NCBI GenBank assembly: GCA_005240015.1
Contig: SBBV01000566.1
Coordinates: forward strand, 1 to 14,874
Reading direction: 5' to 3'
Length of the DNA stretch: 14,874 nucleotides
Source of the DNA: Candidatus Odyssella thessalonicensis
GTDB taxonomy: Bacteria; Pseudomonadota; Alphaproteobacteria; Bin65
Numbering within the stretch: position 1 is the stretch's first letter; each line of letters starts with the position of its first letter. Shown here one piece after another: positions 4,581 through 11,165 of the stretch. The position numbers and the translations under genes are program-made. The notes below the pieces were generated by a model. The model did no database searches. It was not told where the DNA came from and saw only the letters and a program-made list of their open reading frames with translations.

Positions 4581-4930
4581 ATGTGGACACGAGAGACACG
4601 GGGCCGCATGGGCCGCGATCGGGCTGATGGTCAACCTTACCGCGGCGGAGGCTGGCCATGGGTCAAGGACCTGTTCGCCGACGGCGCCTACGATAGGACG
4701 CAACTGATAGACAAGGTCGCCTTCCTCGACTTCGTCATCGAGGTCGTCCGCCACATCGACGCCGAACCGTGCTTCAAGGTCCTGCCACGCCGCTGGGTGG
4801 TCGAACGGACCTTCGGGTGGCTCACCCGCTGGCGCCGCTTGGTGCGTGACTACGAACAACGGATCGATTTCTCCGAAGCCATGATCCACGTCGTCATGGA
4901 AGCCTTCTGCTCTGAAGGATCAGCCACTAA
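4581..4930 (+). pseudogene. IS5-family DDE transposase remnant, internally deleted and frameshifted
   Basis: The N-terminus MWTRETRGRMGRDRAD resembles the first residues of IS5-type transposases. It is joined after about 16-28 codons to the end of the catalytic domain: LFADGAYDR (second catalytic aspartate), KVAFLDFVIEVVRHID, KVLPRRWVVERTFGWLTRWRR (catalytic glutamate in VVER) and DYEQRIDFSEAMIHV. The DNA-binding region and the first catalytic aspartate, well over 100 residues in intact relatives, are missing. At the end, a one-base loss after VVM shifts the frame: the ancestral reading GSLLLxRISH-stop lies in the neighbouring frame, itself carrying a TGA, and its TAA is at 4928-4930. The open frame instead runs on to 5099 through unrelated DNA. 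Not functional. Confidence 0.8.
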
Positions 4931-5045
4931 CGTGCATGCTGGTCGGCTCAGACCACCGCAGGCTGCTGCCAGCATCCGCCCTGCTCGGCGCCGAGACGAT
5001 GGATCTGTGCATGGATTGCCGGCGGCGGCTGCGCGGGTCAGCAGT

Positions 5046-5261
5046 TCAAAGGATGACCAGGAAGTTGGCCTCGACACCTTGAGGTCCGCGTACGATTAGT
5101 CGGCTCTTTGGCCCGGCGTGGCCGGAGCACCATTCCCCGACGACGCGGCTCGCTCCGCCAGAATAGGTCGGTACGTAATGCGGACCGTAAGCGTTGGGCG
5201 CACACGCAGCGGCGATGCCGGCAACAAAGATCGCGGCACTGAACCTATGGGTCGGCACCAT
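5046..5261 (-). CDS. Possible small lipoprotein (fragment) carried inside the decayed IS
   Basis: On the minus strand within the extra DNA of the IS, an open frame of 71 codons starts MVPTHRFSAAIFVAGIAAAC, a plausible signal peptide ending in a lipobox-like AAAC around residue 20. It is followed by PNAYGPHYVPTYSGG and a segment GEWCSGHAGPKSRLIVRGP that reads like a real protein rather than a shadow frame. The frame extends upstream to an ATG at 5327, but the start at 5261 puts the signal peptide first. It stops at 5046, close to the junction with the transposase remnant, so it may be a truncated passenger gene. No family recognised; the ribosome site is weak. It could also be a chance ORF in high-GC DNA. 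Confidence 0.35.
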   Translation of the reverse strand: MVPTHRFSAAIFVAGIAAACAPNAYGPHYVPTYSGGASRVVGEWCSGHAGPKSRLIVRGPQGVEANFLVIL

Positions 5262-8353: not shown

Positions 8354-8395
8354 GGCGTTTCTCATACCAACGCGCCCCTGAACCGATGGATGGCA

Positions 8396-8416
8396 AAAAG
8401 GGGTCAGACCCCTTTT
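8396..8416. repeat. Palindromic hairpin repeat, copy 1
   Basis: AAAAGGGGTC, one A, then GACCCCTTTT: a perfect 10-bp palindrome. As RNA it forms an A4G4/C4U4 stem with a small loop, ending in a U run on both strands, which resembles a bidirectional intrinsic terminator. A second copy differing only at the central base lies 41 bases further on. Confidence 0.75.
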
Positions 8417-8456
8417 CACGCTTGCCGTCCACGCCTAGCGTGCATCGGCGTAGCCG

Positions 8457-8477
8457 AAAAGGGGTCTGACCCCTTTT
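8457..8477. repeat. Palindromic hairpin repeat, copy 2
   Basis: AAAAGGGGTC, one T, then GACCCCTTTT: identical to the copy at 8396-8416 except for the central base. Flanking bases differ, apart from one extra A or T, so the palindrome itself is the repeated unit. Both copies lie in the leader of the SnoaL-like gene. Confidence 0.75.
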
Positions 8478-8542
8478 TGCGGCGAGTCACCTCACGAGCG
8501 CGTTGGTGCCACCTCGCGCCGGCCCGATGCCGGGCGGCGAGC

Positions 8543-8606: not shown

Positions 8607-9035
8607 TCATGCCTCTTCGGCCATGCCGATGAGGATGCGGCGGAGCACGCGAGTCGGCAGCGGCATGGGCGCGCCCGACCTGAATGCGGCCCAGAGATAT
8701 TCCTCGGGCGTGCCGCGATAGCGCGCCGGGATCTGCGTGCGCTCGCGATCGCGCGGCCACTCGACGTAGGCATAGGCGTCGGCGCGGGCGCGGATGCGCG
8801 CCGCCTGCGTGCTCACCGGCACCCCAGGATAAAATCGCTGCGCGAGCGCGCGCAGCACGGCGTCGCGGATCTCGTTCGCGCGCTCCGGCGGCCCGCCGTT
8901 CCCGATCCTCTGCCGGAGACCGACCGCGCCCAGGGCGCGCTCGAGCCATAGCGCCAGTTCGAAGGGTAGATCGTGGCCGGCGCCGGCGCTGGCGCAGAGG
9001 CCGGGCACGCTCACGCGCTTCGGCATGGGTTGCAT
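8607..9035 (-). CDS. Uncharacterised protein, paralogue of the gene at 9772-10236 (TetR cassette)
   Basis: A 142-residue soluble protein with no recognised domain. Residues ~23-142 align with the protein at 9772-10236: LPFELALWLERAL near the start, RDAVLRALAQRFYPG in the middle, and a strongly conserved end, PARYRGTPEEYLWAAFRSGAPMPL then RVLRRILIG. It lacks the internal stretch (HSIDEALGLR...WWLEE) of its paralogue. I chose the ATG at 9035 for its excellent ribosome site GGGAGGA; the frame extends to 9080, but that extension (MNERRF) is just the translated operator. It lies 61 bases downstream of tetR on the same strand, with an operator-like palindrome 27 bases before its start, so TetR control is likely. 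Arginine/tryptophan-rich; function unknown. Confidence 0.75.
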   Translation of the reverse strand: MQPMPKRVSVPGLCASAGAGHDLPFELALWLERALGAVGLRQRIGNGGPPERANEIRDAVLRALAQRFYPGVPVSTQAARIRARADAYAYVEWPRDRERTQIPARYRGTPEEYLWAAFRSGAPMPLPTRVLRRILIGMAEEA

Positions 9036-9061
9036 GTTGTCCTCCCGGGGGCGAGGCGGTG

Positions 9062-9079
9062 TGAATCGACGTTCGTTCA
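9062..9079. promoter_or_regulatory. Putative TetR operator A
   Basis: TGAATCGACGTTCGTTCA, an imperfect 18-bp palindrome sharing the TGAA...TTCA ends and the ACGTTC core with three other sites near tetR. It lies 27 bases upstream of the start of the 142-residue paralogue. The weakest of the four sites; the corresponding promoter boxes are poor, though a TTGAAA overlaps the tetR stop codon. Confidence 0.55.
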
Positions 9080-9096
9080 TCTTCGGTGCAAATTTT

Positions 9097-9663
9097 TCAA
9101 GCGGCGAGGAGGCGCAGCGCAGCGCGCGACACGGTCTCGGACAGGGCCGCCGGCGTCGCCGTCACGCGGCCGCCGACCGAAAGCTCCACTACCTGATTGA
9201 TCGCGCCAACGATCATGGTTGCGGCGATGGTGGCGTCCTGCTTCGGGATCTGGCCGAGATCGATCGCGCGGGCGATGAGGTTGCGGAAGGCGAGGAACGG
9301 GTTGCCGCCGCCCGGGCGGACCCGGCGGGTGTACTCCTGGCGCGTGCGGATGAGGTAGGCGAGGCCGGCGCCGTCGCGCTCCATGCTGGCGAAGACGTGG
9401 GCGATCAGCGCTTTGAGCCGCGCGGGGAAGGGGCCGTTGCCGGCGGCGAGCCGCTCGAGCTCCGAGCCGATGCGGTGGAAGAGGTCGGCGAAGAGAACCT
9501 CGGCCAGCTCGTCCTTGCTCTTGTAGTGATTGTACATCGCGCCGAGCGAGACGCGCGCCGCCTTGGCGATCTGGCGGATCGAGGTCTCGGCGATGCCGTG
9601 CTTGACGAAGAGCGCGAGCGCCGCCCGCTCGATCCTCTCCTTGGTCTCGCTGCCATCGCGCAT
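9097..9663 (-). CDS. TetR/AcrR-family transcriptional regulator
   Basis: A 188-residue one-component repressor. The N-terminal DNA-binding domain is clear: ERIERAALALFVKHGIAETS, IRQIAKAARVSLGAMYNHYKSKDEL (residues ~30-54, recognition helix and the YNHYKSK hinge), followed by the helical ligand-binding and dimerisation domain, which has no recognisable family and therefore an unknown inducer. The ATG at 9663 follows AGAGGGG; a frame extension to 9702 (MNKCSF) is only the translated operator. Its promoter (TTGACA, 17 bases, TAATGA) is overlapped by an 18-bp palindrome, so it probably represses itself. It lies between two paralogous genes on the same strand that have similar palindromes, and these are its likely targets. 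Confidence 0.92.
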   Translation of the reverse strand: MRDGSETKERIERAALALFVKHGIAETSIRQIAKAARVSLGAMYNHYKSKDELAEVLFADLFHRIGSELERLAAGNGPFPARLKALIAHVFASMERDGAGLAYLIRTRQEYTRRVRPGGGNPFLAFRNLIARAIDLGQIPKQDATIAATMIVGAINQVVELSVGGRVTATPAALSETVSRAALRLLAA

Positions 9664-9683
9664 GGCCGGCCCCTCTACCGAAG

Positions 9684-9701
9684 TGAACGAACATTTGTTC
9701 A
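9684..9701. promoter_or_regulatory. Putative TetR operator B (autoregulation)
   Basis: TGAACGAACATTTGTTCA, symmetric at 14 of 18 positions. It overlaps the -10 box of the tetR promoter (9699-9704) and ends 21 bases before the tetR start codon, the expected place for a self-repression site. Confidence 0.72.
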
Positions 9702-9727
9702 TTACCGGCGGCGGCCGGCCGTGTCAA
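9699..9727 (-). promoter_or_regulatory. tetR promoter (sigma-70 type)
   Basis: On the minus strand, a perfect TTGACA (9722-9727), 17 bases, then TAATGA (9699-9704). The -10 box runs into operator B, so bound repressor would block polymerase. Confidence 0.65.
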
Positions 9728-9771
9728 GCGCGATTCCGGGCCACCGGAGCGAGGCCGCGGGAGCACGGGCG

Positions 9772-10236
9772 CTAGTCTCCGGCCCCGGCGGCCCCGGCGA
9801 GGATGCTGCGCAGGCGGCGCTCGCCGAGCGGCATCGGCGCACCCGATCGGAACGCGTGCCAGAGGTATTCCTTGGGCGTGCCGCGATAGCGCGCCGGCAT
9901 CTCCGCGTGCTCGCGGTCGATGGGCCAGTTGGCTGACGCGAACCGGTCGCTCAGCGCCACGATCGCGGCCGCGCGCGCCGTCGTCGACTCGCCGGGATAG
10001 AACCGTTCGGCCAGCGTGCGCAGCGCGGCGTCGCGCACGCGCATGCCCTCCTCGAGCCACCACGGGACGCCACCCTTGGCGAACCGCAGGCCGAGTGCCT
10101 CGTCGATCGAGTGGCAGCGGCGGTCGAGAAACTCGCGCAGCGACCGCTCGAGCCAGAGCGCGAGCTCCTCCGGCAGCGCGGTGCCGTCGCGGAAGCATTC
10201 GGCGATTTCGCGGAGATTCTTGATCACCAGCAGCAT
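9772..10236 (-). CDS. Uncharacterised protein, paralogue of the gene at 8607-9035 (TetR cassette)
   Basis: A 154-residue soluble protein, function unknown. Order of visible segments: LREIAECFRDGTALPEELALWLERSLREFL, then HSIDEALGLRF and VPWWLEEG, then VRDAALRTLAERFYPGES, and the conserved C-terminal block ARYRGTPKEYLWHAFRSGAPMPL. From about residue 19 it aligns with the product of 8607-9035, so the two arose by duplication around tetR. The ATG at 10236 follows AAGGGGAAG; a frame extension to 10311 (MSERTF) is the translated operator. Two operator-like palindromes precede it (10293-10310 and 10387-10404), the outer one on a good promoter. The ALWLERSL and YRGTP blocks may reflect a family of small alphaproteobacterial proteins, but I cannot name one. 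Confidence 0.78.
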   Translation of the reverse strand: MLLVIKNLREIAECFRDGTALPEELALWLERSLREFLDRRCHSIDEALGLRFAKGGVPWWLEEGMRVRDAALRTLAERFYPGESTTARAAAIVALSDRFASANWPIDREHAEMPARYRGTPKEYLWHAFRSGAPMPLGERRLRSILAGAAGAGD

Positions 10237-10292
10237 GGCTTCCCCCTTTTCGGGACGGCGCGGGCGCCGTGGGCCGATCGCGTCTCCGGTAA

Positions 10293-10310
10293 TGAACGTA
10301 CGTTCGCTCA
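10293..10310. promoter_or_regulatory. Putative TetR operator C
   Basis: TGAACGTACGTTCGCTCA, symmetric at 14 of 18 positions, 57 bases upstream of the 154-residue paralogue. A minus-strand TATAAA (10311-10316) abuts it and could be a second -10 box, though no good -35 accompanies it. Confidence 0.68.
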
Positions 10311-10386
10311 TTTATAGGCCAAGCTGACCGCACGGCCGGGTCTTCTTTCCGAAGGCCCGCGCACAGGCGCCGGTGCGGACCGTAAA

Positions 10387-10404
10387 TGAGTGAACGCACG
10401 TTCA
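10387..10404. promoter_or_regulatory. Putative TetR operator D
   Basis: TGAGTGAACGCACGTTCA; its reverse complement matches operator C at 16 of 18 positions. It touches the -10 box of the minus-strand promoter at 10404-10431, so it should control the cassette from its outermost promoter. Confidence 0.68.
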
Positions 10405-10431
10405 TAATATATTAGGCGGCACCCGCGTCAA
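10404..10431 (-). promoter_or_regulatory. Promoter of the 154-residue cassette gene (sigma-70 type)
   Basis: On the minus strand, TTGACG (10426-10431), 16 bases, then TATTAT (10404-10409), in an AT-rich patch unlike the surrounding DNA. Operator D begins at the end of the -10 box. The transcript would have a ~160-base leader containing operator C. The stretch 10432-10651 upstream of the next gene shows nothing else I can name. Confidence 0.55.
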
Positions 10432-10651: not shown

Positions 10652-11165
10652 ATGACCGAAACGTCTCCGCTTACCTCGCCCAAATCCGTGCTCGTGCTGC
10701 TCGCGGCGCTCGGCTTGGCCGCTTGTGCCGGACGCACGCCGGCGCCGGTGGCGCTCGCGCACGCGACCGATACGACCGCGACCTGCGAGGCGTTCGCCGC
10801 CGAAATCGCCTCCAACAATCAGCGGGCCCTGTCGCTCGCGCAGCAGCAGTCGAACACCACGGCGAAGAACGTCTCCGCCGCGGTCGTCGGCGTTCTGCTG
10901 TTTCCGCCGCTGCTGCTCGCGATGGATCTGAGCGGCGCCGACGGCGTCGAGCTGCAGGCGCTGCGCGCGCAACGAGCACATCGCCACGCTGATGCGCCAG
11001 AAGAAGTGCGCCAATGTTCCTCCGCCGACGCCCGAAGCGGCGCAGACCAAGGCCATCGACGACAAGATCCGCGATGCCACCAAGTCCGGCCAGCAGCCCT
11101 GGTGCAAGGACGTGGGCGGCTACGAGGTCTACAAGCAGCGGACCGGCGAAATCTGCCGGCTCTAG
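10652..11165 (+). pseudogene. Small lipoprotein gene with a frameshift in a GC run
   Basis: The first part reads as a lipoprotein: MTETSPLTSPKSVLVLLAAL then GLAACAG, with a lipobox LAAC at residues ~25-28. A polar stretch (CEAFAAEIASNNQRALSLAQQQSN), a hydrophobic segment AAVVGVLLFPPLLLAMDLSGA (~71-91) and VELQALRA follow. At about 10964-10971 the coding sense moves to the next frame, which continues naturally as ARNEHIATLMRQKKCANVPP and ends DVGGYEVYKQRTGEICRL at TAG 11163-11165. Adding one GC to the GCGCGC run (LRARNEHI) restores a single frame of about 171 codons. This is either a real slippage mutation or a sequencing/assembly error. Four cysteines beyond the lipobox suggest a periplasmic disulfide protein. 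Unrecognised family; the ribosome site is GGGGAGA. If the frame were left unrepaired, the ORF would run into the bamE region at 11269. Confidence 0.7.

What the first reader, a model, noticed from the sequence alone, without database searches (positions are those of the whole stretch)
8607..10236. TetR regulator between two paralogous orphan genes
Two genes of an unrecognised family, sharing a conserved end (ARYRGTP-EYLW-AFRSGAPMPL), flank a TetR gene on the same strand, each with its own operator-like site. This looks like a self-contained regulated cassette with duplicated effectors, inserted into a conserved housekeeping region. The function is open: it could be a stress or small-molecule response. 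It is the best candidate here for an undescribed system.
Basis: partly seen in the sequence, partly recalled or inferred. Interest (0 to 1): 0.72.

Follow-up and report, generated by a model that had tools for sequence, protein, structure and literature searches.

The report
TetR-controlled pair of unknown proteins
A soil-type bacterium carries a small genetic switch in which one repressor gene appears to control itself and two related proteins of an undescribed family; a similar switch with a similar DNA control sequence turns up in distant relatives, but what the proteins do is not known.

Summary
On the minus strand lie orphan A (ATG 10236), a TetR gene (9097-9702) and a shorter paralogue B (8607 to about 9035). 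No library used here names A or B. Four 20-bp sites of the type ATGAACGNNCGTTCAT sit at the start of tetR and upstream of A and B; promoter-like boxes of tetR and A run into two of them. Autorepression plus repression of A and B is the likely wiring (inferred, not measured).

The TetR-orphan pairing recurs: of 8 loci holding this TetR clade, 5 have an orphan beside or near it (4 species, 3 families), one a lipoprotein gene, two an 80-aa gene. It is not obligatory: 6 of 14 orphan genes examined sit by such a TetR. Yet 10 of 22 homologues with an N-terminal extension carry the motif that the operator would encode (MNxxSF). The cassette lies between hppA and bamE, which are adjacent in 7 of 9 sister-genus genomes.

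A and B are predicted helical, mostly basic, with no confident fold match; distant relatives sit in a prophage-like stretch and on an 18-kb plasmid. I favour a TetR-gated, nucleic-acid-binding effector pair; that effector role is weakly supported.

The parts
9775..10236 (-). Orphan A, 154 aa, undescribed helical protein family (GGVPWW ... GTPKEYLWHAFRSGAPMPLGERRLRSIL)
   Evidence: no Pfam, NCBIfam, PHROGs or PADLOC match worth the name; NG86 dN 0.174, dS 0.689 against the G001 orthologue
9097..9702 (-). TetR-family regulator, 201 aa
   Evidence: PF00440 TetR_N E 1.2e-13; clade of 8 TetRs, support 0.906
8607..9035 (-). Orphan B, about 142 aa, short paralogue of A lacking the PWW segment
9683..9702 (.). 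Operator-like dyad at the tetR start, GTGAACGAACATTTGTTCAT
10292..10311 (.). Operator-like dyad upstream of A, ATGAACGTACGTTCGCTCAT
10386..10405 (.). Second operator-like dyad upstream of A, abutting the -10 box
9061..9080 (.). Operator-like dyad between tetR and B, GTGAATCGACGTTCGTTCAT; no promoter-like boxes were flagged here
9699..9727 (-). Putative tetR promoter TTGACA-17-TAATGA; the -10 overlaps the operator
   Evidence: read by eye from the sequence (the pattern scan did not flag it)
10404..10431 (-). Putative promoter of A, TTGACG-16-TATTAT, running into the operator at 10386-10405; same arrangement in G001
10652..11165 (+). Divergent lipoprotein gene; an orthologue with a longer open frame lies beside the G001 cassette; here the frame changes near 10970. 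Control by the operators is possible, not shown

Best explanation
An autorepressed TetR switch. Without its signal, the TetR dimer sits on 20-bp dyads (ATGAACGNNCGTTCAT type) over or beside the -10 boxes of tetR and A and upstream of B, keeping all three off. A ligand, most likely a lipid-like or hydrophobic compound, releases it. Cells then make A and B, small helical proteins that share a C-terminal domain with near-invariant Arg, Trp, Asp and Tyr; B lacks the PWW segment. I think they bind nucleic acid or a nucleoprotein complex, with B a partner or modulator of A. Shown by sequence: gene order, dyads, promoter-like boxes, recurrence of TetR plus operator plus orphan. Inferred: repression, ligand class, biochemical role.
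For: A matrix trained only on G000 and G001 sites finds sites by tetR or its neighbours in loci not used for training: G080, both G319 loci, G017, G166, G035. In those six loci (48,383 bp) 14 positions reach 16 bits, shifted overlaps of one site included; in 129,518 background positions of 12 other loci (one contig in twice) 2 do, one of them the start of a more distant TetR in G299. Promoter-like boxes run into sites for A in G000 and G001 and for tetR in G080 and both G319 loci. The eight TetRs form one clade, support 0.906, midpoint rooted. The orthologous A-tetR pair is in G001. A-type and B-type homologues have equal longest-contig lengths in four other cases (111791, 7692, 4890, 6687); one pair is tagged VIF14_16825 and VIF14_16815. 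10 of 22 extended homologues carry MNxxSF before the core, 0 in 28,827 core residues. Median pI 9.5 (A type) and 9.7 (B type). R68, W104, D107, P114, Y117, R140, R143 are at 91-100% in A and B types and present in the plasmid, prophage-like, Microvirga and C43 members. Relatives sit beside a phage antiterminator-like gene and after replication-initiation-like genes. The next TetRs by profile lie by acyltransferase, MFS-acyltransferase, PHB depolymerase and aldehyde dehydrogenase genes.
Against: No expression, binding or ligand data. 8 of 14 family genes examined lack such a TetR. The same clade adjoins unrelated small genes in three of eight loci. The operator type is not exclusive to the clade: G299, outside it, has GTGAGTGAACGTTCATTCAC at its TetR (24.3 bits). 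The tetR start site of G319 C135 is weak in the matrix (8.0), and in G166 only the target gene shows a site. The MNxxSF motif was narrowed after a first look at the same sequences, and five of the ten carriers are close kin. The ligand guess rests on neighbours of TetRs outside the clade; the own paralogue C240 shows no such dyad. No confident PDB match, so nucleic-acid binding rests on charge, conserved Arg and context; the 5th percentile of pI in A-type proteins is 5.4, so not all are basic. The G166 TetR frame has an internal stop and the G035 frame lacks the N-terminus.
Confidence: 0.5

Rival explanations
1. TetR is autoregulatory and moves about with whatever small gene lies next to it; A and B are one of several interchangeable neighbours with unrelated roles, not a dedicated system.
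For: In G017 the clade TetR adjoins a lipoprotein gene, in G166 and G035 an 80-aa gene with no Pfam match, each with operator-like sites. 8 of 14 orphan genes examined are unlinked.
Against: Orphan pairing in 5 of 8 clade loci from three families; A and B types with equal contig lengths in four other cases; operator-like signature in 10 of 22 extended homologues; purifying selection on A.
Confidence: 0.25
2. A and B are phage-derived genes domesticated in an inserted segment and silenced by TetR; their products are phage-type proteins without a present role in the host.
For: Homologues in the G423 prophage-like stretch (E 7e-19) and on the 18-kb plasmid LR743506 (E 4e-26); a transposase remnant lies in the window, though beyond hppA.
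Against: No match in 50,697 phage records with two family members as queries (A itself was not tried there), none confirmed in the IMG/VR scan, no PHROGs family. Copies in G000 and G001 sit among chromosomal genes and A is under purifying selection.
Confidence: 0.15
3. Anti-phage defence or toxin-antitoxin module.
For: Small paired genes with a regulator in an inserted segment.
Against: No PADLOC family for A or B at E up to 1; TetR only a short weak match to mad1, E 0.028. The genes do not overlap and each has its own site.
Confidence: 0.05

Closest known systems
TetR-family autorepressors (PF00440)
   Same: TetR_N domain, palindromic sites at its own promoter and in front of adjacent genes
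   Different: Targets are an undescribed protein family rather than an efflux pump or enzyme; operator of the ATGAACGNNCGTTCAT type; no NCBIfam model reached its cut-off
TetRs by MFS-acyltransferase (LplT-Aas-like), PlsC-like or PHB depolymerase genes in Alphaproteobacteria
   Same: Next TetRs by profile (E 8e-55 to 1e-37), some with related dyads such as GTGAGTGAACGTTCATTCAC in G299
   Different: Outside the clade in the tree, different neighbours and mostly different dyads. In L078 the acyltransferase part scores just under the Pfam cut-off (22.2 against 23, at the edge of the locus); in L096 it is above
Ribosome modulation factor RMF (PF04957)
   Same: One distant prophage-like relative (G423) matches weakly over residues 83-123, E 0.021
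   Different: Below the family cut-off; none of the 29 members of A1 was listed with it; a lead only

Membership tests
TetR family of regulators | N-terminal TetR_N helix-turn-helix domain | tested here: met
   51.1 bits against cut-off 24
TetR family of regulators | Palindromic operator-like site at its own promoter | tested here: met
   Dyad at 9683-9702 over the -10 box; similar in G001, G080 and G319; binding itself not testable
TetR family of regulators | Ligand-released repression | not testable with these tools
   Needs binding and expression assays
A known TetR type (NCBIfam) | Score above the curated cut-off | tested here: not met
   Best MtrR 59.6 bits against 280; none of 24 listed reached its cut-off
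Any Pfam or NCBIfam family (A and B) | Match above the curated cut-off | tested here: not met
   over 29 family members the best Pfam E is 0.009, in one member
PADLOC defence protein | Profile match for A or B | tested here: not met
   0 families for both at E up to 1
PHROGs phage protein family | Profile match for A or B | tested here: not met
   Best E 0.23 (A) and 0.29 (B)
Known protein fold (PDB) | Confident structural match | tested here: inconclusive

The most novel reading that the evidence does not exclude
A and B found a new effector family shared between phage-like elements and chromosomes, acting on transcription or ribosomes, gated by a TetR clade that senses a membrane or lipid signal; B is a modulator made by loss of the PWW segment.
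Probability: 0.15. Interest if true: 0.7.

Novelty: new variant of a known kind. Interest (0 to 1): 0.48.

Why it matters
It gives an anonymous gene family with over a thousand database homologues and no family entry in the libraries used a predicted regulator, promoter and operator, so that induction conditions can be tested directly. The recurring operator also allows target prediction in uncultured Alphaproteobacteria.

Tried and rejected
Pfam, NCBIfam, PHROGs and PADLOC scans of family members gave nothing usable. Weak hits (HTH_32, DUF7917, Hydro_N_hd, DUF6639, RMF, Cas4-domain phrog) were rejected as isolated and below cut-offs. Sequence search of the PDB gave best E 0.11. Fold searches of both models gave no confident match; BFVD was searched for A only, best E 2.0.

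IMG/VR: 9 pattern matches, none confirmed. Phage records: none, with P0027 and the plasmid-borne member as queries. Plasmid records: 2, Methylobacterium bullatum and, weakly (E 2e-4), Microvirga ossetica. The Pseudomonas locus L007 covers only 27 residues and was dropped from the gene count; L006 is the same contig as G017:C645 and was counted once.

Paper searches (search listings and abstract starts only, no paper opened): 64, 65 and 80 returned none; of the others I saw 10 of 22, 8 of 387, 6 of 44 and 6 of 7 listed papers, none on this operator or family by title or abstract start. This covers only open PubMed Central texts and those terms.

Defence, toxin-antitoxin and recent tandem duplication were considered and set aside for the reasons given. 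The dN/dS for A against B (NG86 0.397 and 0.896) was not used; YN00 failed there, and the C43/C44 comparison failed on a frame error. The gene-picking script mis-called some genes, for example the TetR of L072, on the opposite strand.

Full report
What is there. The window is contig C279 of a 74% complete genome of 3.52 Mb in 624 contigs. Its order is riboflavin genes, nusB- and thiL-like genes, a transposase remnant, hppA, a SnoaL-like gene, then B, tetR and A on the minus strand, a divergent lipoprotein gene, bamE and further housekeeping genes to plsX (names without a family match in those calls, such as hppA and plsX, are recognised from the translations, i.e. recalled). A is 154 aa; B is best started at about 9035, where its orthologues begin.

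The sites. Four dyads occur: 9061-9080, 9683-9702, 10292-10311 and 10386-10405. Searching five genomes for TGAACGAACGTTCGTTCA with up to 3 mismatches gave, as distinct places, 3 in G000 (3 in the cassette), 4 in G001 (3 in the cassette), 6 in G017 (3 at its TetR locus), 2 in G080 (both in the cassette) and 0 in G319; the reversed control gave 0, 0, 1, 0, 0 on the forward strand. With a looser pattern the own genome has 12 distinct places, 4 in the cassette. G319 has variants such as ATGAGTGNNCGNNCACTCAT; the matrix trained on G000 and G001 finds two at 20-21 bits in the C135 locus, upstream of the orphan and of a secreted-type gene, and two at 16-21 bits in the C181 locus, while the tetR start of C135 scores only 8.0 (slightly different values with a fixed background). 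Promoter-like pairs, TTGACA or TTGACG with 16-18 bp spacing, run into or over dyads: flagged by pattern for A in G000 and G001 and for tetR in G080 and both G319 loci, read by eye for tetR in G000 and G001. Such overlap is the usual geometry of repression (general knowledge).

Recurrence. Profile search found the orphan family in 5 of 385 alphaproteobacterial genomes, 3 of 398 in the phylum sample, 2 of 11 in the order, 1 of 3 and 1 of 1 in two other orders and, with A alone, 3 of 61 relatives; these samples overlap. The database of 5.8 billion proteins gave 268 hits for A alone and 1110 with the alignment (120 listed each, and one search scored only the best 7996 candidates). I looked at 14 family genes in context: G000 three, G001 two, G017 three, G080 one, G319 two, G290 one (plasmid LR743506), G423 one, Microvirga plasmid one (a weak member). 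Six lie by a TetR detectable with this TetR as query: A, B, G001 C299, G080, G319 twice; in the G319 C135 locus 1.2 kb lies between. Eight do not; some of those contigs are only 4 to 8 kb long.

From the TetR side. A profile of five TetRs matched 32 of 385 genomes at E up to 1e-30, in a steep gradient: the training members at 1.9e-90 to 8.5e-102, G166 at 5e-72, all other listed places at 8e-55 or weaker. G035 belongs with G166 by synteny and operators though its frame lacks the N-terminus. In a tree of 34 TetRs the eight (G000, G001, G017, G080, G319 twice, G166, G035) group with support 0.906 (FastTree, midpoint rooted, G001, G166 and G035 as partial sequences). Neighbours of the eight: orphan in five, a lipoprotein in G017, an 80-aa gene in G166 and G035. 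The operator type is not confined to them: G299, elsewhere in the tree, has a 24.3-bit site at its TetR start, and G020 a weaker one. The orphan is the commonest neighbour of the clade in this small sample.

Evidence without DNA. Some homologues were called from a start codon upstream of the real one. In 22 of 189 retrieved A-type proteins (the listed best hits of two searches) the extension is 10 residues or more, and in 10 of these it contains MNxxSF, which is what ATGAAC-NNN-NNN-TCN-TTY, i.e. the operator, would encode in that frame. The motif as searched, M[NS]xxS[FL], occurs 0 times in 28,827 core residues. It was narrowed after a first look. Four of the ten begin at that ATG, and five (P0061, P0069, P0070, P0073, P0103) are close kin and not independent. 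That gene was not seen.

Unlinked copies. The C43 copy of the own genome and its G001 counterpart on C44 have other dyads (GTGAGCGATTACTCAC; GTGAGTGTTTACTTAC) next to a TTGACA box, like those near some other TetRs of the wider group. They may answer to a different TetR; this is a guess.

Insertion. bamE was found in all 11 family genomes. In 7 of the 9 genomes of other genera an hppA frame is its direct neighbour; in 2 it is a trmFO-like gene. In G000 the SnoaL-like gene, the cassette and the lipoprotein gene lie between them; in G001 the contig ends inside tetR, so its hppA side was not seen.

The proteins. A is predicted all-helical with pLDDT 89.7, B with 78.6 and a low-confidence N-terminus. 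Neither has a confident match. R68, W104, D107, P114, Y117, R140 and R143 (A numbering) are at 91-100% in A and B types and present in the four more distant sequences compared; A-type proteins add PWW, which B has lost. B has 44 hits, 43 besides itself, so it is an old, maintained variant. NG86 dN 0.174 and dS 0.689 (YN00 0.153 and 1.634) between A of G000 and G001 indicate purifying selection.

Mechanism and doubt. The regulatory half is well supported by comparative sequence; I would put it near 0.8. The biochemical half, nucleic-acid binding, rests on mostly basic charge, conserved arginines and the company of phage replication or antitermination genes, and I would put it near 0.25. The ligand class is inferred from neighbours of related TetRs. 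The stated overall confidence is a compromise.

Novelty. An autorepressed TetR with adjacent targets is a familiar kind; the target family and this operator-TetR clade are, as far as the searches in Tried and rejected go, undescribed. Hence new variant of a known kind.

Noticed in passing
window 8393-8480: Two near-identical palindromic repeats (AAAAGGGGTCWGACCCCTTTT) 61 nt apart, forming perfect 25-nt inverted arms, between the SnoaL-like gene and B. Among 116 fetched loci exact matches occur only in 9 pieces of this same contig.
   Followed up: partly
window 4581-5096: Remnant of a DDE transposase (PF01609, E 2.6e-9) upstream of hppA.
   Followed up: partly
window 10652-11165: Lipoprotein gene whose frame changes near 10970 relative to its G001 orthologue; assembly error or decay cannot be told apart.
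   Followed up: partly
L103 5045-5320 and L104 5352-5621: 80-aa protein beside the same TetR clade, with operator-like sites ATGAACGAACGTTCATTCAA; the L103 copy has no Pfam match.
   Followed up: partly
L073 7512-14913 (G423): Prophage-like island with integrase-like, replication-initiator-like, orphan-family and ClpP-like protease genes; integrase and protease recognised by eye.
   Followed up: partly
L078, L081, L085, L096: TetR genes adjoining an MFS-acyltransferase-like gene in several alphaproteobacterial families, L081 with a dyad GTGAGTAAGCACTCACTCAC; two of these neighbours were checked against Pfam.
   Followed up: partly
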